NCBI GenBank assembly: GCA_963920665.1
Contig: OY987271.1
Location: 13,643,350 to 13,707,349 of the forward strand
Length of the DNA stretch: 64,000 bases
Direction of reading: 5' to 3'
Source of the DNA: Straminergon stramineum
Lineage: Eukaryota; Streptophyta; Bryopsida; Hypnales; Calliergonaceae
Positions within the stretch are counted from its first letter, which is position 1. Each line of letters opens with the position of its first letter. Under the pieces are notes generated by a model that searched no databases, had not been told where the DNA came from, and worked only from the letters and a program-made list of their open reading frames with translations. Shown here in pieces: positions 11,480 through 61,812 of the stretch. Both the position numbers and the translations under genes were made by a program.

Positions 11480-11482
11480 GAG

Positions 11483-29376: not shown

Positions 29377-32300
29377 ATGGGCCGCCACTCGTGTTGTCAC
29401 AAACAAAAGCTGAAGAAAGGGCTGTGGTCGCCCGAGGAGGATGAGAAGCTGGTGCGCTATATTACCAAGCACGGCCATGGCTGTTGGAGCGCTGTCCCCA
29501 AGCAAGCAGGTGCGTGCTCCACTCCTAACACTGTCCACTTCCTTCTTCACTAGCTCCTCCTGGTCCCTGACTGTGTGTCCCCATGTCCAACTGCTTAATT
29601 ACTTCACTTGCAAAGTAATGTCTGACTATGCCCATATTGTATAAAGTAGCCTCATCGTCCAGTTCCTTCTCCACTAGCTCCTCCTGCCTCCCGACTGTGT
29701 GTCCGCATGTCAGTCGATCTGCTTAATTACTTTACATTCAGCATATATATGACTATGCTCACATTTCTGTGAAGTAGCTTTATGTTAAGTTCATATTCTA
29801 TTATGTTCATATTCATGCGGTCATCACGTTTTACAAAATACGCTAGTTGTTCCAGACTTGTTCGAATGGCACCTGTTAACAGTCTTGCTTTCAACTGATC
29901 AGTGGCTTCGATGTTAGACTTTGTAACGACAACGTAACCTTGACAGGTTGACTAATCAGGAGTTGCATAATGATGGCTTGGGAAATGATCAGTTCTAACT
30001 TCCACGTTGTAGGAATTGTAGTCTCGAAGTTAGTGATACTACTGATGTAATGACACTGTAGACTTGTAAGGAACGCTAGCTAGCTTGACAGTTTTCATTT
30101 CCCGTTAATACTTAGTCCCTAGCATTTCGAATACTCGGTATCTAAATTAGATTTGTCGATTACGCTGAAAGAAGACGTATTTTGGCACTCTTAGATGAGT
30201 CTTGACGTTGATTGACCATGTTTCCAGCCTTCGTAATCGATTCTATGTAACCCGAAGTCCAATGTAACCACTTTCCGTAGCAAGTTAAGTCCTTCTAAGT
30301 CTTGCTGCACTTAATTAAGTATCGTTGAAGGACTTTGACTCAAGTGAGAAATCATATTGACTTTGATTCCCCTTCTTCTTAAGACTCTGAAGTCGAATTT
30401 AATACTGAGGTCAGTCAGGCCACGAACCGCAAAGTTTGTTTTGTGAGACGGATTTACAGGTTTTGTTAGAATTAGAAACCGTGAACCATGAACTGATCAA
30501 GATTAGCAATACTAACTTCTTTGGTAATAATCAGGTCTGCAAAGGTGTGGAAAGAGCTGCCGGCTCCGGTGGATCAACTACCTGAGACCCGATCTGAAAC
30601 GAGGAGTGTTCTCGGCGGCTGAAGAGAATTTGATCATTGACTTGCATGCGGCTCTTGGTAACAGGTTCTCTCAATCTCAACACATGATCTGCTCTCCATT
30701 TTATAACAAAATTAAATTAAATTTCATCTCTTTCATTTCACTCTTTTCAGGCTATCAGGGCACGTACTGTTCGCTAGCAGCTCCTAACCTCTCAATCTCA
30801 ACTTACTTCACCTCTTTCTTTTGTTTGTTTCCGTGCTATCAATGCACATTCGGTAGTTACTTACATATGCACACGTACTCCTCTCTGGATGAATCGATCT
30901 CATTCAACTTTACACCTCATCTACTTCACATAACAATCATTCTTCATCTAGCTCTTACATTTGTTTGCATTCATGCGCGCTATCAATGCACTGTCAGAAA
31001 CTTACATACACGCCCACTCCTCTCAATCGATCTGAAACCTCATCCACTTATAATTATTCCCCACCTCTTCCTTTTGTTTGGTTTCAGGCGCGCTATCAAT
31101 GCAGCACGTTCAGTACCTATTCGTAACTGCATAGCCCTGCAGGAGTGAAAAAGCTCCAGGTATCATAATGGTTGAAGAATGAATGCTGTAGAATCGAGTA
31201 AGGTCGTCCGGGTGTGCAATGAATCATTGACAAAAGGTATCGAAATGATCTTAACTTATTTGGGGGTTGTGGTATATGTTACAGGTGGTCCCAGATTGCA
31301 ACGCAACTGCCTGGGCGTACAGACAACGAGATCAAAAACGTTTGGAACTCGTGTATCAAGCGGAAGCTCCGTAGCATCGGCATCGACCCTGACACCCACA
31401 GGCTGGTCACTCCCGAGCCTCTTGCCAATCCTTCCCCTGCTGAAAACTCCCTGCATCCTGGCCATGAGTTTCCAGCCTCGTCGTTCATGAGATTTGGTGG
31501 CAGTAGCAGTAGCCATGAGTTCAAAGCGCAGTCTCTCTTCCAATTGCAACCACCAGCCACCGCAATCCCGATGGAGGATGTGATGTACTGCAATCCAACC
31601 AGACCACCAATCCAGCAATCGAGTGTCGACCGAGCTGCTGCTGCAGCAGCAGGCTTTGGGGGGGATTTCCACTGCGCCAGCAGTCGATTGGGAACCGATC
31701 TCAATGGGGATCTCAATCATGGGGAACTCAACCGGGAGCTTCATGGGGAACTTCATGGGGAGAATGGTGGGGAGGGGGGGAGTAGTGGGGAGCACACTTT
31801 GCTGGAGCGTCTCTTGATGAAGAGCCGGCAGTTGTCGAGTCCGAAGGTGTCAGTGAATGCTTTAGATCTGACACCCCATGAATTATCAGGCCCCCCAGCT
31901 GGCAACAAGACTCCCTCGCCCCCTGCTGCCACGACCATGGTGCCCCCGGTGTTCAACCCAGTCTTCTGGCTCCTCCAACCCGGGGGCCCCACGTCCGCCG
32001 CCACGTCACAACCACCACCAAACCGGAACCCGGAGGTGGAAATGCGGTTGGGACCGTTTTTGCCGAGCTCCGAGCGTTTCCAATCGACGGGGTTCATGCA
32101 CGACCGTGGGGATTTGAGCTCCATGATTAGCGTGAATCAGCAAATGCAGCGCGCGACGGATGTCGTGAATGTGGACGTGGACGTGGAGCATGGCCATGAG
32201 GTCGGGCGGTCGTTGATCGGGTGGGAACAACACAATGGTCGGGACGCCAGCAGTAGCAGCACCAGCAACAACAACAGCAACAACAACAGGCCTGGGGAGA

Positions 32301-32641
32301 GGAGGTTGATGATCTCGGCGTCAGCTGATGGTGATCAGCAATCCCCATTTGATATGAAATCATGGCGTGATTTGGAGCAGATGGGGCGCCTTGGACGGCA
32401 TAACCAGAGCCACGACGAAGGGATACCGGTGACCACGAGGAACACGATGATGTTGCCTCAGGAGAGTCGCCATCTGCATTTCAATGGCGGTGGCCCATCG
32501 TCGACGGCACCAAATTGCGAGAATTGGCAAATGCAGGTTCAGGGGGGGGACAATGGACTGTATGGCCACGCCATGGCTGCAGGGGGGCCCTTGTCACAGG
32601 AGCTTCAACGGATGGCTGCTGTTCTCGACCAGATCAATTAG
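29377..32641 (+). CDS. R2R3-MYB transcription factor, three exons
   Basis: Nuclear DNA-binding transcription factor. Exons: 29377-29509 (133 bp), 30535-30664 (130 bp), 31285-32641; the spliced protein is 539 residues. The donors (CAG|GTGCGT; AACAG|GTTCTC) and acceptors (AATCAG; TTACAG) are canonical, and both introns sit at the positions conserved in plant R2R3-MYBs (after residue 44 and inside Arg88). R2 starts [11 protein letters not shown] with tryptophans 17, 37 and 57. R3 has Phe70 in place of the first tryptophan, as is usual, then W89 and W108. The N-terminal GRHSCC and HGHGCWS motifs resemble the MYB61/MYB50/MYB55/MYB86 group. The long C-terminal part is disordered, with a tandem GELH/GEL repeat and an Asn-rich run. 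The start is the first ATG in frame and matches the family. Exact target genes are not inferable. Confidence 0.95.
29533..29783. repeat. Tandem duplication in MYB intron 1
   Basis: Two copies of a unit of about 125 bp (29533 and 29657). Each contains CACTAGCTCCTCCTG, GACTGTGTGTCC, CTGCTTAATTACTT and GACTATGC blocks. The first copy starts 24 bp after the donor site. It lies wholly within the 1025-bp intron. Confidence 0.75.
30665..31140. repeat. Degenerate tandem repeats in MYB intron 2
   Basis: Four diverged units of roughly 110-130 bp. Each starts with CTCTCAATC-type sequence, runs through a pyrimidine-rich tract, and ends in a GCTATCAATGCAC-type block (near 30752, 30835, 30979 and 31091). 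At least two of the pyrimidine tracts end in TTTCAG, mimicking a 3' splice site. The frame of exon 2 stays open across the whole stretch, to a stop at 31146-31148. Confidence 0.65.
31310..31330 (+). promoter_or_regulatory. Possible miR858-type target site
   Basis: The codons for the R3 motif GRTDNEI include TACAGACAACGAG. The block ACAGACAACGA is the part of the MYB target that pairs with the 5' half of plant miR858. The remaining positions match only partly. The site is embedded in conserved coding sequence, so the match may simply reflect protein conservation. Confidence 0.3.
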
Positions 32642-45204: not shown

Positions 45205-45212
45205 CTCCAAAG

Positions 45213-45231
45213 CAGGGTTGTTCTGTCGAAC
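45213..45231 (+). repeat. Giant hAT left terminal inverted repeat
   Basis: CAGGGTTGTTCTGTCGAAC directly after CTCCAAAG. Further GTCGA/GACGA motifs follow over the next 100 bp (GTGTCGAGTTGTTCGTC near 45249) and have counterparts near the right end. Confidence 0.88.
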
Positions 45232-45422
45232 GTGTTTTCGGGTTTGGGTGTCGAGTTGTTCGTCTGATGTCGCATGTCATATAAGACGAGTGTCGCATAT
45301 ACGAGACAAATTTGACGAGCGCGAAATTAGGGTTTAGGATTTTCGAGTAGGGCAGCCAAAATTTTTATCTTACGTGGCGGGTTGTCAACAGTGACATGGA
45401 AAGCTTTGACCACGTCACCATA

Positions 45423-45575
45423 GGCGACTGCGGGTGGGGCGTGTGCGGGTAAGGTGGGGCGACTGCGAGTACCAGAATGAGGGCGACTGCGGGTCCAAAA
45501 TCCAGGGCGACTACGGGTCCAACTCAGGGCGACTGAGGGTGTAAAGGCGACCGCGGGTGTAAGGAAAAGGGCGAT
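45423..45575 (+). repeat. GCGAC minisatellite array 1 (left subterminal)
   Basis: About seven diverged units of the form GGGCGACTGCGGGT with spacers of varied length. Orientation is plus. It lies about 210 bp inside the left terminus and near the 3' end of the transposase gene. Confidence 0.85.
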
Positions 45576-45582
45576 CTTGGCT

Positions 45583-45816
45583 TTATCCCATACGCAAGGA
45601 ATTTCTTTTGTTCCATGGATGATAAGAACTTCTAATATACGACATAAATGCAATTGTCCATCTTTGAAAATTGGGTCCCAATTCCCAAAAGAGAGATCTT
45701 ACTGAGTCCTCATACCGGAAATGAGTATTTTTGTGAGGGGAAAGGCAAGTACATCACATCACAGAGTTCCATTGGAGATGATTTTCATACTCACTAGTCC
45801 ATCCGTTAAAGGTTAA
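45583..45816 (-). mobile_element. Degenerate TTAA MITE inside the giant element
   Basis: The minus strand follows the order of the 230-bp TTAA family; the right end is AAAGGTTAA and the left end is decayed (TTTATCCC). Length of about 234 bp matches the family. Either it inserted after the giant element arrived or it travelled with it. Confidence 0.5.
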
Positions 45817-46441
45817 GAGCAACCTTGTGTGCCGTTGCAATTGCAAACATGGATATAACAACCATTTCAATCTTGCTCATGATTTAGGATCCTTCAGTTT
45901 CCATGTGCCATTGCATTCTCCTAAGCCTTAAATTAAGTATTTCACATTCTGTGGTCATTCACTCATTCATAGGAGCCTCCGAGTTCTACATGTTTTTATT
46001 ACATATGGTTGGGAATTTCTAATTCAAATTTTCTACTCCTATTGAAGTGTAGAAGCCAATATCGCAATTGGATATAATAATTACACCAAAAATAGATACA
46101 AAAACAAGAAAAAAGTAAGGATAATTAGTATTACTGTATTTATAAGTTGTACACACTAATAGAGTAGTGACCCAATCTTATAAATGAACTTCTACTTCAA
46201 TTGTACTTCCATGAACTTTGTTAAGATCTCCACGTCTATACTTGTAGAAGTCCACACTAAAGACATTGAACAAAACTTTGTAATTCTAACACTATCATGC
46301 TTTCATACTAAAGTAGATACTACACAAAACTCATCTATAGGCTATTTGCCTATGAACTTAAGCTAGAAAACTTCAACACACCAAAATTATGCAAAAGCAT
46401 TACATTACCACTTCACTACCTCTAAATCTATATTTATAAAG
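45817..46441. other. Non-coding stretch downstream of the transposase
   Basis: AT-rich, no gene or repeat recognised. It would hold the 3' untranslated region and polyadenylation signals of the minus-strand transposase gene. Confidence 0.4.
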
Positions 46442-49400
46442 TTACGGTGAAAATGTGTAATCACTAGGCACCTCATCAGCGTCAGGGTCAGAATCATCAT
46501 CCGACTCCTCCCCCCTATCATTATCATCACGGTTATCATTCTCGTCATCCTCCCTTTGTACTCGTTCATTTTGCACTTCATGTTCTACCTCTGAGTTCAC
46601 GTTCCGCACTTCAGTATCCACGACGCCATCGCCACTAGTTTGCACCAATCGTTTAGTCAACCTCAATGCATCTCTTGTTCCATCAAGGTTGGATGCAGGA
46701 TGTCGTCCGCCTCTACTAGATTGCCCGATGTTTCGATTCGAATTGGCTTCACCCATGATGAATCTTTGGACAACATGGTTCTGTCGTTTGGGATTTCTTT
46801 GTAGCCTCTCTTGCGTCTTCCTCAATCGCTTTTTCTGTCCTCTTGTGCCTTCACGCATGAGCAAGGATGATTCTCCAGGGCCAGAAATAGAGGAGGGTTG
46901 AGTGGGTTGCGGAGCTGAAGCATGGCCTTCATTATCAACTGTCCTAAGAGGACTATTATGCAAGGGCGGCCTAGTCGCACGGGTTGGTATAGACCTAGTC
47001 GCCCTAGCATTGTTTGCATTTCCTCCTCCACTTAAGGGCACCGTACGATTCCGGTTCATAACAGCTTGCAAGGGCAAGTCTGAATCATATTCCATATTTT
47101 CTGTTCTTAAGGGGCTTCGTAATGGAGAAAGTGGAACGCTTGTAAGCACAACATCTTCGACGTGTGTTGGCGGTGTTGCCTCCTCTTGCCTTTCATTTAC
47201 CTCAGCAACTCGAGCAGCACTTCGTAGGTTCATTACCCTTGTAGAACCTTGATCTACGACATTTGGAGATCTTGCTTCCTTAGCTCTTATGGGCATTGGA
47301 CTATGTATGCCTTCATTGGGGTTGTCGGGACTACTTGCTCGAGTTGGTGATGAATTTATTGGAGGAGGTACATTCCTATCCCTAGCAGAGACGTAGGGTT
47401 GCGGGGGCCTTCGCGGTGCACGTTGAATCTCCTCCTCCTCAGAGTAGTACGTATTATTCTCAGCTGTAAATGTATTTCCATAGTTGTGTCTCCGTGGAGG
47501 ACTCTTTTCACTACGAATCAGTCCTGTCCAAATATTTCCACGTAGACGCTCTTCTACCAGCCTAATGTTCTCATTAGCTCGAGCCCTTCTAACTGGGTCG
47601 CCATCCCTTGATGATCCTGTACCTAATGGCTCCTCATTCTCTTCCGAGGTATTTCCATCCATAAGGTACTTTTTGTAGAACACTGTAGGATTGCGTCCAC
47701 GTTTCTCACGTTCAAGTTTACTATTGGTGTAGATATACACCAATGCTTCTGCCTTGGATGTGGTTAGGCGATTTCGCACTTTATTGTGCACAAACGAATA
47801 CATGCTCCAATTCCTTTCACATGATGATGCTGAGCACGTCAAAGATAGAACTCTCATTGCAATTTTTGGGAGAACATTAGCACCCACAAGATTCCACCAT
47901 TGATGAGGCATTAGTTTACATTGTGTAATATCAGGAGCCTCTTCTAAGGGGTCAAAAGGACCTGTCTTCTCTTCGAACTGCGTGAGCTCCTGCAATGCCT
48001 CCATATATGATAATCCCAATGACTCGTTCATTTTTCGAAGCACCCGATTTAAGGCTCTTTTGGCCACACCGTCGTTACGAAGGGTTCCTACTTCAATCAA
48101 GAAAGGATTTAAGAGTGCCCCTGCATAGTGTAGGTCTGTGAGCATCAATTTCCAACGAGCCTCGAATTGCGTCTCAAACTTCGTTGCAGTTTCATCATTT
48201 AGAAAAAAAGGTTCGTTTCTCAAGCTCCACACGTGCTCTTGAAGAGTCTTCATAACCAACCAAGCCTTAGGCATTGTCGGGGCTTTCCCATCAAACACTC
48301 AGAGAGCAATAATGACGGGCTTCACCATGTGCAAAAAATTCTCACACTCCACCCAAAAAGATTCCGCATGAATGTCATTCCGCACTATACGGGCTCACGC
48401 ACTCAATACATCTCCATTTTGGCGACGTTCCAAACTAGCCTCAAATTGCACATATGTCTCATCCATTATCACTCGCATCAATGCTGACTTGCACTCCACC
48501 ACACGTGATATCATGAGGAAGTTCACTGCAAAGCGTGTTTGAGAAGGCATTCGCAATGCCTTGTCCGGAGAGTACTTTCGGAAGAGAGCCAATGTGGAAT
48601 GGTACCTCTTGATGTATTTTACTATCTGCGTACAACGTCATACTATTCTCGTCACCTTGACATCCTTTGCCCAGTCTTCCAAAAGCAAGTCCAAAATGTG
48701 TGCTGCACATCCTTGGGTATACATGTGAGGATATTTCTCTTATAATGCCTTCAAAGTCCCCGTCATGACAGCAGCATTGTCCGTACACAGTTGGACAATG
48801 TTTTGGGGGCCAACCTCTTCTATGTATTGCGCCATCATATTGGTTGTATACACAATGTCCTTCTTCTCCCCCGTGGTGTCCACCGATCCAAGAAACACAT
48901 CCCCCGTAGGACACACGAGCATTAAATTTAGTAATGGACGGCTATTAGTATCAGACCAACCATCCGAACAAATAGTCGCTCCATAAACTTCGATAGAGTG
49001 CTTTGTCCGCTTAGTGACCATTTTAGAAACACTTTCTTTCTTTGGCTCTATCATTCTTGTACGCAAAGCATTGTATGAGGGCAGTGGTATCGTAGTCCTG
49101 ATGCCGCTGTCTCTTTCACTACTTTCACAAAGGCAGGATGGCGTGCAACATTGAACGCGATGCTAGCCTCATAAAAAAAGGAAGCCCACATGGTATCTAA
49201 CTTTGCTCTCGTGCTACTTTGTAATGCCTCATCCATGCTAGTTTGCCTAGAAATGGAAGGGTTATTCCTCCTTCTCAAAATTGTTTAAGGAGTGGAATCT
49301 CCTGAATCTGTAATAGGGAGCATTGGTTCATTCGTAGCACTAGGCTCCTCTGACCTCTCCCTATCCCCCTCCAACATAGGCTCAACCACAGTCTCATCTA

Positions 49401-49719
49401 CAACATCAAATTCTGGAACCTCCTCATGCATTTGTTCAAAGCTCATTTCCTTTGGAACAACCCTACCACAAGTCCTGAACTTTTGCAATACTGCCCATGG
49501 GATTTTCTTACATTGCTCCGATGCAGTCCTGCCGCCAAATCCAAAGTGACAAAATGCCCGCTTTCGTACAAATACAGAGGTCCACCCACAGAAAACACAT
49601 GTTCGTGTGTTTCCCGCAAATTGACGGTCAATGTCTACAACCAACCAAGGGTCCCACTCCTTCGTGGCTCTCCTTGTATCGTTAACGGTAGTCCTCCTCC
49701 CCTCACCCCGACTAGCCAT
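46442..49719 (-). pseudogene. hAT transposase, disrupted
   Basis: Would encode the DDE enzyme that excises and inserts the element. Start ATG at 49719 (an in-frame GTG lies 12 bases upstream). Order: BED-type zinc finger (49510-49599: CVFC, then H and C before KKIP); a DUF659-like core; catalytic Asp in SDGWSD (48962-48964), Asp in CTDNAA (48779-48781) and Glu in SCERNWS (47816-47818); hAT dimerisation region (about 47714-47911, ending KVRNRLTTSKAEALVYIY). After this comes a tail of about 420 residues, low in complexity, Arg/Pro/Ser-rich and then strongly acidic, much longer than usual. Breaks: in-frame stops at 49285-49287, 48740-48742, 48395-48397 and 48299-48301, and a one-base frameshift near 49,105. 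Between these the frame is well kept, so decay is recent or the stops are assembly errors. An array lies upstream at 49,970. Confidence 0.9.
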
Positions 49720-49969
49720 ATTGTTCCTCACCTATGAGTTCTTCAAACAATATTATCATATGAATCAAAGCCTTAATTTAGAAAAAAGAATGGCAAAGCC
49801 ACTTGCTTTGAACGGTCTTTTAAACCACACAAACCAAGTCGTTGCCCTCCAAAGAACCAAACATCCGCAAGAAGCCTCTTTCGAAGATTCAAGGCAAGAG
49901 TTCATCCCTGAAGCAAGGTGAAAACCACAGTCCGGGCCTTCAACTTTATACTGCCGTCCTGCTAGCACC

Positions 49970-50445
49970 GCAAGTCGCCCCCTGAGAGCCAGAATGGGTG
50001 CAGGAAATGGGCGACATCGTAACAGGCGCACTCGCCCCGTGGTTGACTGCGAGTCGACGGTTTGCACTAGGAGCGCGCATGCAGATCAAAGGGCGACTGC
50101 AGGTCCAAGGGGGGCGACTGCGGGTCGAAAAAGAGGCGACTGCGGGTCTAAGGGGGGCGACTGTGGGTCGAAAAAGAGGCGACTGCGGGTAAGGGGGGCG
50201 AGTGCGGGTGGAAGGGGGGCGACTGCGGGTAGAAAGAGGCAATCGCGGGTCAGGGGGGGGCAACTATGGGTCCAGGGGGGGGGGCGACTGCGGGTCTAGG
50301 GGGGGCGACTGCGGGTCCAGGAGGTGCGACTGCGGGTCCAGGAGGTGCGACTGCGGGTCCGGGGGGGGCGACTGCAGGTAGAAGGGGGCGACCGCGGGTC
50401 TCAAGAGGTGACTTCGGGTACTTGAAGGGCGACCGCGCTTACGCT
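49970..50445 (+). repeat. GCGAC minisatellite array 2
   Basis: Units of 17-20 bp such as GGGGGGCGACTGCGGGTCTA, most regular from 50,091 to 50,400, with long G runs. It begins about 250 bp upstream of the minus-strand transposase start, so it sits where a promoter or 5' untranslated region is expected. Long ORFs across it (Gly-Gly-Ala-Thr-Ala-Gly repeats) only reflect the repeat. Confidence 0.92.
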
Positions 50446-51318
50446 TTAGGATCCAAGGCCATTTTTGTTATCCCGTTAGCGTTCCATCGCTGAGTTTCTA
50501 GATGAAAGTCATCCTAGTTTAGATAGAGATTTTATTAAACCCTAAACACTATCCAAGGGTTTCACGTGGTATTTATAGATACTTCAAAAAAAGATTTTCG
50601 GGAGTATGGTCATAGACTTAAAGAATGCAATTTTTTTTTTAAACAACCACATGAAGGGAAACTCATTTCAAATCCATTCCAACAAACTTAATAAAAAATA
50701 AATAGAATTAGCTTGTACTCAAATGTGGAAAAAATTAAGAACTTTCTCTTTCAAATTAAAAAGAAAAATGGGGGACAACATTGGTTGATCAAACCATATA
50801 CATGGAATCCACAACTCAAAATGTATAACTTCCATTTCTCTATCAATTCCAAAAGTATTCTTTTGAGTACCTTTTTAGGATGTTTTTTCCCAAATTATAA
50901 ATCTCAAGAAGAATCCATACATTCACGAGGTGAAGGGCATGGGAATGTTGTCATTTACAATATGTTCAAACCATAGGTTAAAATACTGAAAAATGCAACC
51001 ATATAAACTTATATTGAAACTCTCATGGATGATGCAGCTTAAATTTATTGAGGGTTCTTTGTGAAGACTCAAAGTTACTAGAATTCTTTTCTTTTTTAAA
51101 ACACTACACAAATTTAACAAGAAATTAACATTCACATAACTTCAAATCATCAAAATTTGTCAAAAATTCAAATGTTTGGATCCAAATGCAATCACATTTT
51201 CATACACAAAAAATAAAAATAAACATTCTTGTATTTCAACAAAAATAAGGACAAAGCCTTTTTCTTCATATATCTTGGAAGAAGTATATAGTCATAAAAG
51301 AAACAAGAGCCACCTAAT
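50446..51318. other. AT-rich stretch between two element genes
   Basis: No gene recognised. AAACCCTAAACAC near 50,537 is a telo-box-like motif. The remainder is AT-rich and contains the probable 3' region of the cargo gene at 51,319-52,878. Confidence 0.4.
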
Positions 51319-52878
51319 TTATACTCCATCCATTTCCCCTTGTTCTTCCCTTTTCTTCTTTTCCAATTCTATTTGGGCTCTTGCCACTCTCTCTTCCCTC
51401 TTCAAAAGAGTCAGGTCATGGTTCCACATCTTATTTTGGATCCACCACTTCTTGAACAATGACATGAACCTAATGTGTGCCTTCGGCCACGACATCTTTT
51501 CCTCCAACTTCTGTTCCAATCTTTTCACAGACGCTAACTTCATCTTCAACTTCTCTATTTCCGTAGTGGATGATGAATCTTCAACATCCACAGACAATGA
51601 ATCCGATTGCAACGACCGGTCAATAGGATCTGCATCCTTCATCTCCTTCAAGCGGTTCAATGTCGATCTTGCCTTTTTCACACCTCCTTTTTCAATGGCA
51701 AGGTTGTTTTCTTCCATCCTACATTTTCCCATTATTGTTTGAAGTCATTCATCCATAATAGGATTGACATTTGAACTAGAACCTCCATCTTCTCCCTTAT
51801 TGAACTTGAGGTAAAATTGTTCCAGTTGTTCCATTTCTCTTTGTTGGGCTGCCAAACGAGTTTGTCCAGCTTGAATTAGTTCTTTGAGGGTGCCCACATC
51901 CTCAACCTGAATCTCTTGTGCGCTTCGCTTCTCGATGATCTCACACTCCCTTTTTTTTCCTTCAAGATCCTTTAAAAGCATCTCCAACTCCACTTTATAG
52001 GATTCTTTCGTCCGCTGTTTATTGTCTTCTCCAAGTACACCTTGAAGTTCTTGTTCCATTTCACGCAATCCTTCCATGGAAGGCAAATTCATCAAGGTCA
52101 AAGGAATCTCTTCTTCGGCTTCACTCTCCCCATCCAACCTATCTTCATTAATTTCTTGCAAGCGAGCTTGCACGTAATGGAACACTTCGTCATCTTCAGG
52201 AGGACGGACCCCTATCGGTTCCACAGACATAAAAGGTTCTCCATCCGTTGGTGTGGTCCGTTGCATGTTGCCTTCTTCTGATACCACCAATGCTAAGTTT
52301 TCTTCCATTGATGTATCTTCCATCCTATCCCTAGGTTTAGGCAATGGCTCTTCATCGGAGTCCGATTCTCCAGTTGATGTTGACCAAACATAATCCTCAT
52401 CTGCCACTCCTTCTATAATGTTTTTTTTGGGCCCTAGCCCATCTCGAGGATTATTTGAAGGATCCGCTCTGGGAATGTCTTTTGTATCTGGAAGCGTGGC
52501 ATTCTTGGATGTCTTGAAGGTCATCCAATCTACCGTTTTCCCCAATTGTAACTCTGCATATACCATTTGGCATATGCCCATTGAGACTTCGCTCTGTGGA
52601 ATTTTTCGCTTTCCGTACAATGCTCGGTACACTTCAATACATCTCTGGACAAATGCATCATCCTTGCAGTAATGAAGATTTTCTTGGTTTTGCTTCACAT
52701 GGTGAATGTGTCGATGGTAAGGGAAGAGCTTGTCGATATGGCACCAATCCACAAATAACTTGCAAGTCGTCAAGGTCCAATCGGAATTTACATGACGCCA
52801 TCCCCGATATGCCTTAGCCGTTGGGTCAAGAAGGGCGCGTCGTTGCCTGCTATGGCGATCTCCTTTCTTCTTCGTCAT
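51319..52878 (-). pseudogene. Cargo protein 1: novel 103-residue domain plus coiled coil
   Basis: Function unknown. ATG at 52878. A basic N-terminus (KKK, RQRR) could be a nuclear signal. Residues 22-124 form a domain shared with cargo protein 2: 43 of 103 positions are identical without gaps, including GW, WT, TC, WCHI, FP, RH, NL, YC, AFxQRCIE, LY, EV, YAE and VDW. After an acidic linker (about residues 150-260) comes a long Glu/Lys/Gln-rich segment, likely coiled coil. A TGA at 51745-51747 ends a 377-residue frame. The same frame continues to 51319 with another charged helical part ending KREERVARAQIELEKKKREE. So either a 377-residue protein or a 519-residue one with a stop. The conserved Cys and His could bind metal, but this is a guess. 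A minisatellite lies just upstream. It may be a DNA-binding helper of transposition. Confidence 0.75.
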
Positions 52879-53083
52879 CTTGTCGTGTCACTCTAGCGTA
52901 AAGAGAACTAGACTTTTGTTGATAATATAACCGAAGAAATGAACTCATAAACGTGGAAGCCACAACACGTGTAGATGCCCAAACTTCCAACCCACGAACC
53001 GGCAGTCAAACGCTTCAAGGCGGATGAAAGGCGCAGTGCGACGAAGGAAGTGACGACTTGGGAATCCAGTATCCCCTTAAATA

Positions 53084-53414
53084 CCCGAAGTCGCCTAGGG
53101 CGCGTGCAGGAAGAGGGCGCGTGCGGGTCTTGGGCGACTGCGGATCTGGGTCCCACTATTCAGAAACTACCATTCAGGAAAAATTACAGTTTCTGGAAGG
53201 AGACCTCGGGTGCAGGGTGACCGCGGGTATAGGGGGGCGGTTGCATATGGCGACCACAGGTCTTTTCCTAGGCGACCACGGGTACAGGGGGCGGCTGCAT
53301 ATAGGGCGACCACAGGTCATTTTCTGGGCGACCGCGGGTCTCAGATTCCAAAAGGTCTTCCCCAGTTCATGACGATGGGAGCGGCTGCATATGGGGCGAC
53401 CTCGGGTCAGGGGC
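53084..53414 (+). repeat. GCGAC minisatellite array 3
   Basis: Starts about 205 bp upstream of cargo gene 1. It mixes GGGCGACYGCGGGT units with GGGCGCGTGCGGGT and with longer units such as GGGCGGCTGCATATGGGGCG. Orientation is plus, as in arrays 1, 2, 4 and most of 6. Confidence 0.87.
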
Positions 53415-53596
53415 GCCAAAAAACATGAGTTTGAGTTTCCGCCCTAACAAATTGGAGGGAAGGTGTTCAAACTTTTCAAGTACCGCTCCCCCCTTTTCTA
53501 AGGATTAACTCCAGAAAATTCTAAGAATGAGGCATTCAAGACAAAGTGATCAAAAGTTAATTAAGTACTAAAGAAAGAGAATTGGTTGACGACGTG

Positions 53597-54305
53597 GAGA
53601 GTTGGAAAAGCCCTTCTTCCTAACATTTTATTTCTTCTTCATCCATCCATGTGGTCATGTAAAATTCAACGTAACCATTTCCTACTTTCATTTTTGGAGG
53701 GAGTACATTAAAAGGAGACCTTTCCTTGTGGGGGGAAACGATATACAAATAAAATACTGAAACTGTGGGATGCATGAAGAAAAAATCTTTTTATCTACAT
53801 CAAAAGTGGTTTTAAAAAATGGAGACTTGGGAAAGCTCTTCTCCTTGACATTTTCTTTTTCCGCATGCTCATGTAAAATTCAACATGACCATTTCCTATT
53901 TTAATTTTTAGAGGGAGTACATTTGGAGGAGACCTTCTCTTTGGGGGAAATGAATAAATGATGTACAAAAAAAATACTAACACCATGAGATGCATGAAGA
54001 AAAAATCTTTTGATCTCCATAAGAAATGGTTTTTAAAAATGGAGGCTTGGGGAAGCTCTTCTCCTTCACAATTTTTTTTTTCTTCGTGCTCATGTAAATT
54101 CAACATGATCATTTCCTATTTTAATTTTTAGAGGGAGTACATTTGGAGGAGACATTCCCTTTGGGGGGAAACAATGTACAAAAAAAATACTAACACCATG
54201 AGATGCATGAAGAAAAAATCTTTTGATCTACATAGGAAGTGTTTTTTAAAAATGAAGACTTGGGAAAGCCCTTCTCCTCGTCATTTCATTTTCCATCTTT
54301 AAACA
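53597..54305. repeat. 215-bp tandem repeat, about 3.2 copies
   Basis: Copies begin near 53,597, 53,820, 54,040 and 54,252 (partial). Shared blocks: GACTTGGGAAAGC, CTCATGTAAAATTCAACATG, CATTTCCTATTTTAATTTTT, GGGAGTACATT, GGAGACC, GATGCATGAAGAAAAAATC and TTTTTAAAAAT. The short ORFs across it are repeat artefacts. Confidence 0.85.
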
Positions 54306-54577
54306 TAGGAATTTGAATAGGGTCCTCCTCTTGATACATCAAGGGGATTTAAAACACATTTGAAGGGGTGAATGAATATTGAATTTATTGAAGATTAAAA
54401 AGTTTGGAAATGACACCTTCAATGGTTTATATCTTACAAGTGCAAGGTTTAGGAGTTCAAACTTTTTTATGACATATAATGAAAAGCAAATCACATATGT
54501 TTATCATTTTATCCACCCTAAAAAATAGAAGTACATTACTTTTGGGGTGGCATACATGGAGAAGGTCCATGGTTTTT

Positions 54578-54622
54578 CTATAGGGTTTAGGGTATAGGGT
54601 TAGGCTTTAGGGTTTGGAAAAC
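54578..54622 (+). repeat. Degenerate TTTAGGG telomere-like run
   Basis: TAGGGTTTAGGG, then TATAGGGTTAGGC, then TTTAGGGTTT: several imperfect plant telomere-type units in a row. Too short and diverged to be a true telomere; it may act as a telo-box or be a chance remnant. Confidence 0.5.
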
Positions 54623-54819
54623 CCTCTTCAATTTTTCTAATTAGTCTTACTATAATTCTGTATTTATAGACTGATTTTGTAGTATTAACTCGCTACCAAT
54701 ATTGAAGGACAGGTCAGTTGTAGTCAATGAAGCATGCAATTAAGTCTGACTTCATTAGTGTTGGAGATGGCTCACATCTTCTGCTACGGTGGTTTCTCGA
54801 CTGGCATGACTTTAAGATA

Positions 54820-55735
54820 GAGGCGATTGCGGGTGGGGGGGCGACTTCAAGTCCTGGGCGACCGCGGGTAGGCGCTTGGTCTTCTTGCTTGCTGTTGTTG
54901 AGCCCAATTCGGTGGAATGGGGCGACTGCGGGTGGGGGGCGAGTTCAGGTTCTGGGCGACTGCGGGTGGGGGGTTGGATTTCTGGCTTGTTGTTGTTGAG
55001 CCCAATTTGGTGGAATGGGGTGTGACTGTGTGTGGGGGGCGAGTTCAGGTCTCGGGCGACCGCGGGTAGGGGCGACTTCAGGTCCTGGTGGTTTTGAGGC
55101 CAATTTGGTGGATTGGGGGCGACCTTGGGTGGGGGGGCGACTTCAAGTCCTGGGCGACCGCGGGTGGGGGCGACTTCAGGTTTTGGTGGTTTTGAGGCCA
55201 ATTTGGTGGATTGGGGGCGACCTCGGGTGGGGGGGGCCGACTTCAGGTTCTGGGCAACCGCGGGTTGGGGCGGCTTCAGGTCCTGGTGGTTGTGGAGGGC
55301 AGTTTGGTGGAATGGGGTGCGACTGCGGGTGGGGGGCGAGTTCAGGTCCTGGGCGACCGCGGGTGGGGGGTCCTGGTGGTTTCGAGCCAATTTGGTGGAT
55401 GGAGGGGCGACCGCGGCTTGGGGGCGACTTTAGGTCCTGGGCGACCGCGGGTGGAGGCGGGGTCTTCTGTTTTGGTGGTTTCCAGACTAATTTGGTGGAG
55501 GGGGGGGGGCGACCGTGGCTTGGGGGCGACTTCAGGTCCTGGGCGACTGCGAGTGGGGGCGCAGGCTTCTGTTTTGGTGGTTCGAAACTAATTTGGTGGA
55601 TGGGGGGGGGGGGCGACCGCGGGTGGGGGGCGACTTCAGGTCATGGGCAAGCGCGAGTGGGGGCGACTTCAGGTCCTGGTAGTTTTGAGCCCAATTCGTG
55701 GATTGGGGGGCAACCGCGGGTGAGGGCGTGCCTTC
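54820..55735 (+). repeat. GCGAC minisatellite array 4 with longer higher-order unit
   Basis: The largest array. Short units GGGCGACCGCGGGTGGGG and GGGGCGACTTCAGGTCCTGG alternate inside a longer unit of roughly 100 bp. The longer unit also carries TTTGGTGGTTT and CCAATTTGGTGGATTGG. Unlike arrays 2, 3 and 6, it has no recognisable gene directly beside it. Predicted ORFs in it are Gly- or Pro/Arg-rich artefacts. Confidence 0.92.
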
Positions 55736-55888
55736 CAATCCAAAGAAGTTTTAATAAGTATAACAAGTTCAACTTTTAACATCCAAGAACAAGTCACTTC
55801 ATTAGGACCTTGGGGTCTTCAAGGCATCTTCAGGTGATGCATCGAAGGTTTTGGCTTCCTCGAAGTCATTGTTCTTGTGGAGGTCTCG

Positions 55889-55899
55889 GGTTCGATCCC
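55889..55899 (+). promoter_or_regulatory. Pol III B-box-like motif
   Basis: GGTTCGATCCC matches the tRNA B-box consensus. A weak A-box-like TGGCTTCCTCGAAG lies about 37 bp upstream (near 55,852). No complete tRNA fold could be made, so a tRNA-derived SINE head is the likeliest reading, at low confidence. It lies about 50 bp before a long hairpin. Confidence 0.35.
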
Positions 55900-55951
55900 C
55901 AATGAGATCAATTTGGTTTGGTTCTTGTAGCCAACCGACAAAAAAGAAAAA

Positions 55952-56213
55952 ACAAGACGTCAAGCTAGTTCCCTGTGGTATGTGGGAGGGAAGGTGATTT
56001 GATTCGCAAGGTCTAGGGGATGGTCCATGAGAGTTATAAGAAATCAGTATTGAATTTCGGATGGAAATGTATGTGGTGCAACCTTGCACCTCATACATTT
56101 CCGTACAAAATTCAATACTGACCGTCTCAACCCTCATAGCACATCTCCGAAACCTTGGGAATCAAATGATGTTTCTTGCTCACCTATCGGAGTGACCAAA
56201 CTTGACGTTTTGT
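55952..56213. repeat. Long imperfect hairpin (130-bp arms)
   Basis: The arms 55952-56081 and 56084-56213 are inverted copies separated by 2 bp. Matching blocks include TTGCACC, CATACATTTCC, AATTCAATACTGA, CTCAT, AATCAAAT and CTTGACGT. Many scattered mismatches leave an estimated three-quarters paired. A transcript would fold into one long stem. Confidence 0.8.
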
Positions 56214-57224
56214 CTCTTTGGAGAGAGATAATTTTTTTGTATAGAAAAGTTGAAGTAAACCTTGGATAGCTTTTACAAGAACATATTGAATGTCCTCCAT
56301 AGAATACTTAGCCAAAGAAATTGTACATTGTATAAGGATTTGCATGTGACGGTTCTTCATCTTTAAATGATGGGGTGGCTAATTTTGAGTCCATAAATGA
56401 TAGAAACTCTCTATATAGGATAGAAGAGCATCTCATCATCTTGTAAATTTTGTAGTGTAAGAAGGGGTGGTCCTCCTTGGAAAGTTTACTTCCGAAGACT
56501 GCATCTATAATTTGTAACTTAACAATTTACAACGTGTAAGAAGGATGATTTCGAAGGTGTCCCATTTGTCCATTTAGAAATTTCTTGTATTTTGTGGGTG
56601 ACCAATTTTGAAGGATTGGCATGCAAAAAAAAGAAATGATAGCATTCAAACACCCTTGATGGTTTGAACAATGTCTTCATCAAGGATAACAATCTTTTGA
56701 CTTGATGTGCATATGCTTCATTTATTGTTCATTACTTCATTTCAATGTGCTTTGCAACATGAATGTTTGCATTTATGACCTTTTCCACCCCAAAAGGGTT
56801 TAGGGTTGTGTAAAAAAGCCGAATTCATGTTCATTGTAGAGCAAACTTGAAGAAATTAGAAAAAGACTTTGGACACTTCTAAAGTAACCTCTATAATATC
56901 ATTATGCAAAGGTAGAATGTAAGTATTTCAAGTTCTCCCTTTTTGTTTCAATAGAAGTCAATCATGTCCCGTACTTTTATATTTCTGATTCCCTTTTTCC
57001 GTTTTGGCCCATTCCTTTTTTTTCTTTGTGAACATTGTAGACATATATTTGGAACCATAAAGAAACAAGTCAAAATCTAATTCCACATTCTAGACCATAT
57101 CATAGTGGTCTTATGATTTTATTCGAAAGCAAGCGAAATAGAAGTGGGAAGTTGTAATGCCAATGTTTCTACCCCATATCAAGGTTTCTTTTAGCTATTA
57201 TTTAGGATGGTCCATCCTTTTTGT
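56214..57224. other. Non-coding stretch in the giant element
   Basis: No gene recognised. AT-rich, with a GGGTTTAGGG telo-box-like motif near 56,797. No repeat longer than simple runs was found. Confidence 0.4.
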
Positions 57225-57395
57225 ACCCGCGGTCGCCCAGGACCAGCGGTCGCCCCCACGCGAACGGTCGCCTCCATCCCCGAGGACCTCTGGAACCCGC
57301 AGCCACCCCCTCCCGCGGTCGCCCCAACCCGCAGTCGCCCCTCCCGCGGTCGCCTCCATACCCGCGGTCGCCCCTACCCGCGGTCGCCCCATACC
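57225..57395 (-). repeat. GCGAC minisatellite array 5, inverted, cut by gap
   Basis: Reads ACCCGCGGTCGCCC on the plus strand, i.e. the GCGACCGCGGGT unit in minus orientation, opposite to arrays 1-4. It runs directly into the 200-base N gap, so its true length is unknown. Confidence 0.9.
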
Positions 57396-57595
57396 NNNNN
57401 NNNNNNNNNNNNNNNNNNNNNNNNNNNNNNNNNNNNNNNNNNNNNNNNNNNNNNNNNNNNNNNNNNNNNNNNNNNNNNNNNNNNNNNNNNNNNNNNNNNN
57501 NNNNNNNNNNNNNNNNNNNNNNNNNNNNNNNNNNNNNNNNNNNNNNNNNNNNNNNNNNNNNNNNNNNNNNNNNNNNNNNNNNNNNNNNNNNNNNN
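57396..57595. other. Assembly gap (200 N)
   Basis: A run of exactly 200 N bases at the end of array 5. The real amount of missing minisatellite is unknown, so the length of the giant element is approximate. Confidence 0.99.
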
Positions 57596-58404
57596 AACGA
57601 AAAACCAATTATGCCCCAAATACCATATTAATCGAGGAAATTTATTGAGCTTATTTGTCTCAAGTGATTTGCTGCATTGTTCCTCCTTGTATATAGGATT
57701 TTTTAGAATTCTAGCTTTAGCGTAATTTGAAGAAAATTACAATGGATATTGAGGAATTAGGTAGGTTTTATATGTAAGTTGGCCTACTGATATTTTTTAT
57801 GAATTTGAATTTTGACCTCCAAGGACAGGGTGAACCATTTGAAGGTATGGTAATGTGAAGTCAACAAGTCAACATCCACGAAAAGGGGCATGTTGTATTT
57901 GAACCCCTTTTATTCCTTCTTTGGCCAAGTATCTTGAAAGCTTAGAGGAAAAGCTTTGTATAATTAGAACCTCACGATTTTAAAGAATATGAAAGGAAAT
58001 ATCCAATTGGACAATGATGCTCCACTCTAGTGAGTAGTGACCTAGTTTTCTTCTCAATGCAAGTGAAATTAATTTGAAAAGTTAAACTTTAGGAGCTTTG
58101 TTGATTTGATTCATACAAACTATTTTTGGAAGAACTCGAAAAGATCATTCTCGACATGATTTCAGAAATTGGTGCTTTGGTAGAGAGGAAAAAAAGGTAG
58201 TATTAAATAAAAATCAATGCCATATGGAATTGCCATACATAGGTATGCTAGGAAGTCGTAGAAGTGGAATGAAAGAAGCAAACCCTAAACCACTCCATCA
58301 TACTTGCCAAAACAACTAGAAACATAGTGTAACTAAAACCTAACCCTTACTTGTCATCTATTATGATGGGAGGTAAGGCTAAATTGCATGATTCCTATGA
58401 ATGT
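57596..58404. other. Non-coding stretch downstream of cargo gene 2
   Basis: AT-rich, no gene recognised. AAACCCTAAACCAC near 58,279 is telo-box-like. Probably holds the 3' untranslated region of the minus-strand cargo gene 2. Confidence 0.4.
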
Positions 58405-60896
58405 CTAGTCAATTACATTTGGGTTGTTTTGAGAGCCACTTCCTTCACCTTCTTCGTAGGTCGATGCTTCCCCAACCCCTAGCTTTCGCTTTGCACGGGT
58501 TCGTGAAGCTGGTCCGTCTGCCTTCAAAATTGATTGCAACACGTTGGAGTCCTGTAGAGCTTGGAGGGTCCTTGTTGTTTGTGGAGAATGTGCTTCCAAC
58601 AAGTAGTCAAGTGCTTGACTTTGGTAATATGGTCCGTACGTAGAAGTCCAGGTAAGCCATACTAGTCAAGTCTTCTAGGGAGGCACTATCATCTTGATTA
58701 ACCACCCTTTCTCCTTCTAAATTCCAACGGTGTCGTTGCGGATGAGGACCCCACTTGAAGGTTGAGGAGGTCTTGTCCCAATATCCACCAAGGCATTGGA
58801 AGAAGAATGCCCTCCTCCCTTCATTTTGTGGCCCCTTTCCCATGAGCCTTGGTGCAACTCTGGCAATTTCGTCTGGGTCTGTTTCCCAATTCAATTGCGA
58901 GCTAGCAGGTCCTTTTTCTTGATCATGTTGTCCTTCTCGCCAACTCCAAACCAAATCTCGGCCCCACAAGGTTGTGTCAGCCGTAGTATCACGTGTGTGT
59001 TCCAAGAAGGAGGCATGTAGGTCGTCAAGTTGAACATGGTATATAGGCGATCATGGAATGGTGCTGAACAAATCACACAACGTCGTCTAATCAAGCATTG
59101 TGTGATGAGACATTGGGGGTGGTATACATGTGCACAAGATCCTAGTGCCCAACCCCCTTCGGGGCCAAATTGTTCAAGACATATGGGGCATTTGGTATGG
59201 TCCAAAACAAAAGGTGCAGGCTTGGGCCACAATAGCATTCGTTTCTTCTCTTCTATGTGGCTAGACATTTGGTTTTGGTGGTCCCAACCATTTTTGCTCC
59301 AATCTATGACCTCCTTTTGTGGCAATTCCACCATGCACATGTTATTGGGAAACATGTCCTCCAACAATGCCCATGACGTCAGTCCATTCTCACGTTTAGG
59401 AGCATTTGCAACAAAGTTTCTAGAAACTTTCTCTAGCTCCTTCGCAACTTGTTGGGATCTATCCACGGAGAGAATGCAGGCAACCTTCCAATGGTAGTAT
59501 GTGGTAGTCAACTCAGCCAACTTTCTTCGAAGCATCTTATTTTCTTCTTGAAGTCCATGGTCTTTCTCCAATTGAATAATTGATGGAACCACAGGAAACG
59601 AAAGAGAGTCTTGGGTCCCATTGAGGTCAATTGTGTCATTGGTAGTATATCTTGTGACAATAGTAGGAAGTGTATTTGGAATGATGGGGGAGTGTCTAGT
59701 GCACTTGGCAAGAGGAGAACGCTGAAGGATATGGTTGGTAAGGTCCCCCACAACCTTGTCCACATTTTGGAGGTTCTGCTCAACAAAGGCGTCATCCATA
59801 TCCGACAAAGTGAAAGTGTCAGGGTCTTTCTCACGGAGGCGTTGCAGTTCTATAGTTTGTTGAGAGATGAGTGTACTTTTTTGTTCACACTCACATCACA
59901 ATTTCCTCATTTCATTCTATAGTGAAGAAATTTCAACATCTTTGGTCTTGAGGAGGTCCAGAGCTTTTGCCAAAGTCATAATGTCATGGCTTGAGCCCAT
60001 TGTTGATGGAGAAATGGGAACACGGTTAGTTTCTTCCATAGCTGTGTCCTCATCGGGCCCAAAGTCGAAGACGTCATTTGTGCACTGTGTTGGCAATGAT
60101 GGGTTAGGAACTATAGTTGGAATCGATGCGGGTCCCACTCGTGTTGTTGAACGCCGTACTCTAGATGGTTGCCTTGGTCGTTGTCCCATGGATGTCGCGG
60201 GTCCTTCTACAACTTCATTTGAACCTCATTGGGGCAAACAGATTGCTCCACGATTCGTATGACCCTATGGACGCACGTACCATCAAAGTCATCATCTTCT
60301 TCAGACTCCTCAGTGTCAACCTTAGTGGCAGGGGTTTGCGTTTTGTATGCACTTCGAATAGGACCGAGTCCCCCCTCAGGAAAAGCTAAAACTCCTTTTG
60401 GGATGAAACCACTCTCTGGACGAGTGACATATGTACTTCCCTTGATTGTGCTCCAATCAACCTCCTTGTTTAGAGCGACCTCAGCATATGCTCCTCTAGC
60501 AAGGAAGAGGGGGACCTCGTTCCTATCTACAAAGGCGGTTTTGTAGAGGACTTGCCACAATTCAATGCATCTTTGAAGGAATGCTGGATTCTCACAGTAC
60601 TTCAAGTTGGCCTTATTGGTGTGCCGATTATAATGATGACGCCATAAAGGAAAGAACTTGCCGATGTGGCACCACTCGATGTAGTCTTCACAGGTTTGTA
60701 TTGTCCAAGGCTCTGGTTCTTCATTCCAACCTTTAAAAGCAAGGTGGGCTTCACTATTGAGCACGTGCAATCGCTTCCGATGAATAGTGCCCCTACGCTT
60801 GCGATGTTTGTCTTTGGCAGCCTTTCGTAATGCCCCGGCGGTCTGTGCAGCTGCGGAGATAGGCAATGCCCTGGCATTGTTAACTCCAGTGGCCAT
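58405..60896 (-). pseudogene. Cargo protein 2: same novel domain plus RING-H2 finger, disrupted
   Basis: Function unknown; the RING suggests a ubiquitin ligase. The likely start is ATG at 60896; the frame is open upstream to 61049. A basic N-terminus (KDKHRKRR, HRKR) precedes the domain shared with cargo protein 1 (60435-60743: WCHIGKFFP, NLKYC, AFLQRCIE, YAE, VDW). Then an acidic linker (EESEEDDD), a helical, probably coiled-coil region, and a RING-H2 finger (59068-59190) with CPIC, SCAHVYHPQC and CVIC, giving C3H2C3 spacing. The tail ends in a Lys/Arg-rich, Gly/Ser-rich segment. Breaks: frameshift near 60,220; stops at 59917-59919 (TAG) and a TGA just downstream near 59,897; frameshifts near 59,000 and 58,605. 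Introns might explain some breaks, but I saw no clear splice pairs. A gene model with three or four pieces is possible. Confidence 0.75.
59068..59190 (-). other. RING-H2 zinc finger of cargo protein 2
   Basis: Eight metal ligands in order: C-x2-C, 14 residues, C-x-H-x2-H-x2-C, 10 residues, C-x2-C. All are present, so the fold is probably intact despite breaks elsewhere in the gene. Confidence 0.88.
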
Positions 60897-61070
60897 CAAT
60901 GATTGTCGTGTCCAAGGCTCAAAAAACTCTTTTGGGAGTTTAGGTGGTCCACAACTACTAAGGTAAGAAGGGTGGATGAATGTAATAAATAGTAAATAGT
61001 CAAGGTTCACGCATGTAGCCACTAAAGGATACAAGACAAGAAGCCTCAATGAAAGGTGCCCAAAAGGTCT

Positions 61071-61618
61071 TGGGCGAGTGGATAAATAGATGGGGCGAGC
61101 GCGGGTGAGAGTTGGTCATGGGGCGCGTGCGGGTGGGCGACCACCGGTTGAACCCGCGGTCTCCAGGGGGCACGCGCGGATCTCGGGGAGCGACTACGGG
61201 TCTGGTAGGGCACATTCGGGTTCGAGGAGGTGACTGCGGGTCCAGGGGCGCGTGCGGGTCCTGGGAGGGGCGACCTCGGGTACAAGGGCGCATGCGGGTC
61301 TTTTGGGGGGCAACTGCGGTTACAGGGGCGCGTGCAGGTCCTTTGGGGGGCGACTGCAGGTCTTTGGGGCGCGTGCGGGTGCCTTGGGAGGCGACTGCGG
61401 GTCTTTGGGGGCGCGTGCGGGTCCCTTGGGAGGCGACTACGGGTCTTTGGGGGCGACCGTGGGTAATTGTGGGGCGTTACTTCTCTTTGGGTTCTCACTT
61501 CGTGTCTTTGCTTCGCAGCTTGCCACGTACTCGACACCCACGGTTGCCCACCAGCCTGAACCCAAAGTCGCCCTACCCGTGGTCGCCCAAACCCGAGGTC
61601 GCCCACACCCGCATGCAC
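61071..61618 (+). repeat. GCGAC minisatellite array 6 (right subterminal)
   Basis: Starts about 175 bp upstream of the cargo gene 2 ATG. Between 61,240 and 61,460 it alternates two units, GGGGCGCGTGCGGGTCC and GGCGACTGCGGGTCTTTGG, forming a dimeric higher-order repeat. Units at 61,555-61,615 are in the opposite orientation (CCCGTGGTCGCCC, CCCGAGGTCGCCC), so the outermost right units mirror those of array 1 at the left end. Confidence 0.9.
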
Positions 61619-61785
61619 CCCTTTAGGATGCTACATGGAAGACACGTGTCTGCCACATGGCATCTAGGTGGCCTCACGGGCAGGGTAAAAAAAATTTTAA
61701 AAGTCAAAGGTAAGTTTGACTCTATTAGACGGACAAGAGGGTCTACTTGACGTGTTGGACGTCATGTTCGTCGAGTTGTCGAACT

Positions 61786-61804
61786 GTCCGCCGGAACAAC
61801 CATG
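61786..61804 (-). repeat. Giant hAT right terminal inverted repeat
   Basis: The minus strand reads CATGGTTGTTCCGGCGGAC, pairing with the left end at 15 of 19 positions and followed outside by CTCCAAAG. GTCGAGTTGTCGAAC at about 61,770 resembles the left subterminal GTGTCGAGTTGTTCG. Confidence 0.88.
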
Positions 61805-61812
61805 CTCCAAAG

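What the first reader, a model, noticed from the sequence alone, without database searches (positions are those of the whole stretch)
45205..61812. Giant cargo-carrying hAT transposon
Terminal repeats (15/19) and a perfect 8-bp duplication CTCCAAAG enclose 16.6 kb. Inside are a hAT transposase gene and two genes not known from hAT elements. Size, cargo and internal arrays are all unusual for the superfamily. The right end is defined by both duplication and inverted repeat, so this is not just a guess from gene content.
Basis: partly seen in the sequence, partly recalled or inferred. Interest (0 to 1): 0.92.

Follow-up and report, generated by a model that had tools for sequence, protein, structure and literature searches.

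The report
Giant five-gene hAT transposon family
A plant genome carries hundreds of copies of a very large cut-and-paste transposon that brings along a kinase, a RING protein and related helper genes, all with the same repeated DNA motif in front of them, which suggests a jumping gene with its own regulatory toolkit.

Summary
Both ends and the 8-bp duplication CTCCAAAG are exactly where stated. The window's genome (326 Mb) holds many relatives. In 7 of 7 copies with both ends read, the ends are flanked by a different, perfect 8-bp duplication. 247 right ends match within 2 mismatches (reversed-pattern control 0). The window's 200-N gap stands for about 4.6 kb; three ungapped copies are 20.96-21.46 kb.

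The full element has five single-frame genes: hAT transposase, protein kinase (hidden by the gap), RING protein, and two coiled-coil proteins. The last three share a helical domain without a PDB match. A 14-bp motif occurs 101-115 times per ungapped copy, upstream of all five genes in one main orientation, never in coding sequence.

A second, diverged family (15.8 kb) has its own hAT transposase, RING and kinase genes, and a different motif.

So the "cargo" is a conserved kit, not random passengers. I infer that it regulates or de-silences the element, as VANC does for VANDAL elements; that function is untested.

The parts
45205..45212 (.). left copy of the 8-bp target-site duplication CTCCAAAG
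   Evidence: six other complete copies have their own different duplications
45213..45231 (+). left terminal inverted repeat CAGGGTTGTTCTGTCGAAC
   Evidence: matches in the own genome begin here in 40 of 40 places, within query bases 1-10
45422..45562 (+). left subterminal array of the motif GGGCGACYGCGGGT (7 matches, first 210 bp from the end)
46442..49719 (-). hAT transposase gene, about 1,090 codons, broken in this copy (1 frameshift, 5 stops over the 980-codon reference); DUF659 and hAT C-terminal dimerisation domain
   Evidence: Pfam PF04937 2.2e-26, PF05699 2.5e-07; state of the frame
49967..50440 (+). motif array upstream of the transposase gene
51319..52878 (-). gene 2: 519-codon coiled-coil protein with N-terminal GW/WCHI domain; one in-frame stop at 51745-51747 in this copy
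   Evidence: 109 matches in the own genome; 6 relatives in metagenome proteins
53083..53407 (+). motif array upstream of gene 2
53799..53806 (.). ATCAAAAG: unoccupied site at which another copy (C5a) carries a 3.7-kb short relative with the same ends and this 8-bp duplication
54821..55726 (+). large central motif array (98-bp period)
57225..57395 (-). motif array in reverse orientation, cut by the gap; upstream of the kinase gene in ungapped copies
57396..57595 (.). assembly gap of 200 N that stands for about 4.6 kb holding a protein kinase gene (+, 529 codons in the copy used as reference) and gene 4 (+, 487 codons, GW/WCHI domain and coiled coil) in other copies
   Evidence: kinase Pfam PF00069 3.7e-13
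58405..60896 (-). gene 3: 830-codon protein with N-terminal GW/WCHI domain, coiled coil and RING finger; broken here (3 frameshifts, 2 stops against the reference copy)
   Evidence: RING Pfam PF17123 1.8e-06; open in 2 of 7 copies read; 12 relatives in metagenome proteins
61093..61464 (+). motif array upstream of gene 3
61536..61620 (-). right subterminal motif array (last match 184 bp from the end in ungapped copies)
61786..61804 (-). right terminal inverted repeat, reverse complement CATGGTTGTTCCGGCGGAC
   Evidence: 247 right-end matches in the genome, control 0
61805..61812 (.). right copy of the target-site duplication CTCCAAAG

Best explanation
It is a member of a high-copy family of giant autonomous-type hAT DNA transposons, about 21 kb and five genes when complete. 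SHOWN: ends, 8-bp target duplications, copy number, gene content and order, one shared motif in front of all five genes, and a second diverged family with the same transposase-RING-kinase kit but its own motif. INFERRED: the hAT transposase cuts and pastes the element; the three GW/WCHI-domain proteins (gene 2, gene 4, RING gene 3), which carry a basic stretch before the domain, bind the motif arrays at the element's promoters and ends; with the kinase and the RING ubiquitin-ligase-like activity they keep the element's own genes expressed, most likely by countering DNA-methylation silencing. This works like VANC proteins on VANDAL elements, in an unrelated superfamily. My odds: element identity and integral kit about 0.95; motif recognition by element proteins about 0.6; anti-silencing as the purpose about 0.4.
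For: Ends and duplications. Nested short relative with an empty site in 9 of 10 other copies. Arrangement across the genome: 27 of 40 left ends have gene 2 at 6.4-7.7 kb; 47 of 109 gene-2 copies have a listed right end 10-22 kb on in the right orientation, though only 100 of 247 right ends were listed; shifted control 0. Five genes. Selection: changes shared between copies have N/S below neutral (omega 0.23-0.66) while private ones are near neutral (0.85-1.38); the four non-transposase genes pooled give Fisher p = 8e-4. Kinase active-site residues invariant or nearly so over 20 relatives of 26-61% identity. Second family: right end sharp in 38 of 39 non-self matches, begins CATGGTTGT like the first family, predicted duplication plus left terminus found exactly once in 326 Mb, at the expected place, transposase 43% identical over 712 residues with DUF659 and Dimer_Tnp_hAT, RING and kinase genes beside it. 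Motif: 101/106/115 per ungapped copy, 0 in the coding sequence examined, 8-17 in gene orientation in the 1.2 kb upstream of each gene, 0-2 in shuffles, all 94 window matches inside the element. Arrays in one orientation in non-coding DNA, with a family-specific motif, are what passages of PMC5735166 report for VANC targets. C>T plus G>A make up 71-80% of changes in the copies, as expected if copies are methylated.
Against: No expression, methylation or binding data. None of the 11 copies examined has all five genes open, so activity today is not shown. For the transposase alone the selection contrast is not significant (p = 0.14), and shared changes can include recurrent C>T. The GW/WCHI domain has no Pfam or PDB match, so DNA binding rests on basic residues and analogy. 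Gene 2 and gene 4 were not found in the 19.8 kb read at the second-family copy, so they are not part of a minimal kit. The upstream count for gene 3 also holds 6 matches in the opposite orientation, from the right-end cluster.
Confidence: 0.8

Rival explanations
1. The motif arrays are transposase-binding subterminal repeats that spread inward, and the accessory proteins serve transposition itself (like TnpA of CACTA or the Myb-like protein of Harbinger elements, recalled), not anti-silencing.
For: Arrays lie 210 bp from the left and 184 bp from the right end, and other hAT transposases bind subterminal repeats (recalled).
Against: A 363-bp relative that keeps only about 106 bp of the left and 113 bp of the right end, with no motif, is flanked by a 7/8-matching duplication, so the arrays look dispensable for transposition in cis. 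Arrays sit 159-343 bp upstream of each gene, which fits gene control better.
Confidence: 0.25
2. The extra genes are host genes captured as passengers, like ToxA in ToxhAT, and matter to the host rather than to the element.
For: Kinases and RING proteins are common host proteins; ToxhAT shows that a hAT can carry cargo (passages).
Against: The kit recurs in two hAT families whose kinases are only 28% identical; its genes lack introns within the frames seen, share one promoter motif, and three share one domain.
Confidence: 0.04
3. Two or more adjacent or nested elements share the span by chance.
For: The span is unusually long for a hAT (recalled) and holds genes on both strands.
Against: Same ends, order and spacing in other copies; only one pair of ends inside the window element. 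Where a nested element does occur (C5a) it shows its own ends and duplication.
Confidence: 0.01

Closest known systems
hAT superfamily (Ac/Ds, Tam3, hobo; DUF659-type plant hATs)
   Same: 8-bp duplications, short inverted ends starting CAGGG/CATGG, transposase with DUF659 and hAT dimerisation domains
   Different: about 21 kb instead of a few kb, and five genes instead of the usual one (usual size and gene number recalled)
ToxhAT (fungal hAT, 14 kb; PMC6737239, passages seen)
   Same: large hAT-type element with inverted ends and extra genes
   Different: different gene set; here hundreds of copies in a plant-like genome, a kit shared by two families, and shared promoter arrays
VANDAL elements with VANC anti-silencing proteins (PMC5735166, passages; PMC10398659, abstract and outline)
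   Same: accessory proteins, plus a family-specific short motif in dense same-orientation arrays in non-coding DNA
   Different: VANDALs are Mutator-like; no VANC-like domain was found by Pfam here; the kinase, RING and GW/WCHI proteins are unrelated as far as tested
Starship giant transposons of fungi (search listings only)
   Same: giant size, multi-gene
   Different: Starships use a tyrosine recombinase (recalled); here a hAT transposase with 8-bp duplications

Membership tests
hAT superfamily | 8-bp target-site duplication | tested here: met
   7 of 7 complete copies, and one nested short relative with an empty site in 9 copies
hAT superfamily | short terminal inverted repeats | tested here: met
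   15/19, CAGGG.../CATGG...; the 40 left-end places start at it within 8 bases
hAT superfamily | transposase with hAT C-terminal dimerisation domain and a D-D-E type core | tested here: met
   PF05699 and PF04937 above cut-off; motifs CSDGW, CTDNA, CERNW found in order in the reference frame (assignment to the catalytic triad recalled)
VANDAL/VANC | Mutator-like transposase and VANC protein | tested here: not met
   only hAT domains in the transposase; no VANC-type Pfam match named for genes 2-4
VANDAL/VANC | dense same-orientation motif arrays in non-coding regions | tested here: met
   supports 'works like', not membership
VANDAL/VANC | element protein binds the motif and removes DNA methylation | not testable with these tools
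   needs binding and methylome data
Starship | tyrosine-recombinase captain gene (DUF3435; recalled) | tested here: not met
   no such Pfam match in the frames scanned
protein kinase superfamily (hidden gene) | kinase domain with catalytic residues | tested here: met
   PF00069 3.7e-13; invariant K306, H418, N419, N425, D444, G446 and D420 at 90% or more in 20 aligned relatives
RING finger proteins (gene 3) | RING zinc finger | tested here: met
   PF17123 just above cut-off, PF13639 just below; RING models match 7 of 15 members of A3; E3 activity not tested

The most novel reading that the evidence does not exclude
A lineage of giant hAT transposons carries a self-encoded regulatory system: up to three paralogous DNA-reading proteins, a kinase and a RING protein act on family-specific motif arrays in front of every gene of the element to undo host silencing. 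Protein families and motif arrays co-evolve, giving independent 'private' anti-silencing systems in one genome: an independent invention of the VANC strategy, with signalling enzymes added.
Probability: 0.4. Interest if true: 0.93.

Novelty: new variant of a known kind. Interest (0 to 1): 0.88.

Why it matters
hAT elements are textbook small one-gene transposons. A family with hundreds of 21-kb, five-gene copies, and a sister family with the same kinase-RING kit, shows that this superfamily can evolve virus-like gene complexity. One motif in front of all five genes makes a clear, testable prediction about how a transposon controls its own expression against host silencing, outside the single well-studied case of VANDAL/VANC. 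It also warns that gapped assemblies hide genes: here a 200-N gap conceals two of the five.

Tried and rejected
Chance duplication, nested elements and passenger cargo were considered and rejected (see rivals).

Fold of gene 2: full-length model poor (pLDDT 56), no PDB match. The shared domain alone modelled well (pLDDT 87, pTM 0.84) but matched nothing in PDB or viral models.

Viral contigs: no relatives of gene 2 or the kinase, so no support for a viral origin.

Empty site of a full-length copy: joined flanks of copy C3b hit only a repeat in one flank; no empty site found. A first look with the joined flanks of seven copies against the DNA held found none either.

Selection on the transposase alone: contrast not significant.

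Never answered (not completed) despite repeats: right-end DNA search, left-end pattern count, genome count of the 363-bp relative.

Full report
What the window shows. The 8-bp repeat CTCCAAAG and inverted ends lie exactly at 45205 and 61812. Between them are a broken hAT transposase gene with DUF659 and hAT dimerisation domains, a coiled-coil gene (gene 2) and a RING gene (gene 3), all on the minus strand, an N gap at 57396-57595, and arrays of a GC-rich motif.

Copies in the same genome. The window is part of a 326-Mb genome of 59 contigs, searched here without a name. The MYB gene in the left flank fits a plant; a moss is only my guess from genome size and about 11 large contigs. The left 501 bp matches 40 places, all starting within query bases 1-10 (only the best candidates are scored). 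I fetched 10 of the 39 other copies over 20 kb. They are collinear with the window copy over the stretches they hold, apart from gaps and insertions or deletions. In 7 copies both ends were read, counting the window, and all 7 have perfect 8-bp duplications: CTCCAAAG, AATACCCC, CCATGAAC, TAAATATG, AGTGTAAG, ATACCATA, CACTGAAC. For the other 4 of 11 the right end was not fetched. A right-end 27-mer occurs 247 times with at most 2 mismatches; the reversed control occurs 0 times.

Empty site. Copy C5a carries a nested 3.7-kb relative with the same kind of ends and duplication ATCAAAAG. Nine of the ten other copies, including the window at 53799-53806, have the uninterrupted site with one ATCAAAAG. 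This shows that such ends transpose and make 8-bp duplications. For a full-length copy, one attempt found no empty site.

The gap. Where the window has 200 N, copies C6a, C11a, C3b and C11b have 4.63-4.96 kb (C3b itself has a gap in it). Three copies without any N are 21,343, 20,963 and 21,458 bp. The hidden stretch holds two plus-strand genes: a protein kinase (PF00069, 3.7e-13) and gene 4, which has the same N-terminal domain as genes 2 and 3 (38-44% identity). Copies C10a, C3a, C5c and C3b also have 200-N runs in this part.

State of the genes. Against reference frames taken from the copies themselves, frames free of stops and frameshifts are: transposase 1 of 11 (the reference, which stops earlier than others), gene 2 2 of 11, kinase 2 of 6, gene 4 1 of 7, gene 3 2 of 7. 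No copy examined has all five open. Of 109 scored gene-2 matches in the genome, 522 residues is the commonest open frame. Between copies, changes private to one copy look neutral (omega 0.85-1.38), and changes shared by two or more look constrained (0.23-0.66); C>T and G>A make up 71-80%. Pooled over the four non-transposase genes the contrast has p = 8e-4; for the transposase alone p = 0.14.

Relatives elsewhere. Metagenome-derived proteins include 6 relatives of gene 2 (88% over part, otherwise 38-58%), 40 of the kinase (26-63%) and 12 of gene 3 (35-99%, where a thirteenth row is a gene-2 relative). The 99% one suggests the same or a very close species. Their genomic context could not be seen. 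In 20 aligned kinases the catalytic residues are invariant or nearly so.

A second family. A relative of the kinase (P0018) found 81 places in this genome that fall into two lineages, which I sorted by frame and identity: 44 like ours and 37 others. One place of the other lineage was read in part. Beside the kinase is a RING gene (34-54% identical to gene 3) and a hAT transposase 43% identical over 712 residues, with both hAT domains. The right end is sharp in 38 of 39 non-self matches (one stops earlier) and starts CATGGTTGT, as in our family. From it I predicted the left end: its duplication plus CAKGGTTGT. The one exact match in the genome lies where expected, at C5:9889810-9889826 (seven one-mismatch matches elsewhere; controls 3). 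This gives a 15,826-bp element. About 2 kb at its left end was not read. Genes 2 and 4 were not seen in it.

The motif. GGGCGACYGCGGGT (up to 3 of 14 mismatches) occurs 101, 106 and 115 times in the three ungapped copies and 0 times in the coding stretches examined. The 1.2 kb upstream of each gene has 8-17 in one orientation relative to the gene and 0-2 in the other, except gene 3 with 6 in the other, from the right-end cluster. Five shuffles gave 0-2. In the window, all 94 are inside the element. The second family has a different motif, near GGGCGCGGACT, in front of its transposase and between its RING and kinase genes. A 363-bp relative with both ends has none.

Interpretation. Transposition by the hAT transposase is well supported. 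The kit recurs in two families and is constrained, so it serves the element. I think genes 2, 3 and 4 read the motif and, with the kinase and RING activity, keep the element expressed. Passages on VANC describe same-orientation arrays of family-specific motifs in non-coding DNA, bound by an element protein that removes methylation (PMC5735166; PMC10398659 abstract). Binding and anti-silencing are not shown here.

Literature. Searches found no listed paper on a hAT with a kinase or RING gene. A 2026 review of gene capture in plants has no 'hAT' or 'kinase' as a whole word in its main text (PMC13317346). This is an open-access library only.

Noticed in passing
L043/L044, C5:9882951-9883313: A 363-bp miniature relative with both ends of our family, no motif, flanked by ACTGTAGG/ATTGTAGG (7 of 8), sits inside the second-family element; its genome count did not complete.
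   Followed up: partly
G000 contig C11 (about 14.79, 4.05, 1.44, 2.51, 9.33 and 1.06 Mb): The gene-2 matches most like P0006 (60-69% over the N-terminal part, 47% for one over 424 residues) are all on C11, the shortest of the contigs C1-C11 whose lengths were seen.
   Followed up: no
L021/L022 (copy C5a), element-oriented 9103-12814: Nested 3.7-kb short element with the family's ends and arrays but no match to the five proteins.
   Followed up: partly
window 30531-32641: R2R3-MYB-like gene in two long frames with Myb domains.
   Followed up: no
window 11759-12211 and 16033-16563: Tandem arrays rich in ATATGACT, unrelated to the element.
   Followed up: no
G000 copies C10a, C3a, C5c, C3b and the window: Five of 11 copies have 200-N gaps in or near the array and kinase/gene-4 region, so assemblies lose part of this family.
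   Followed up: no
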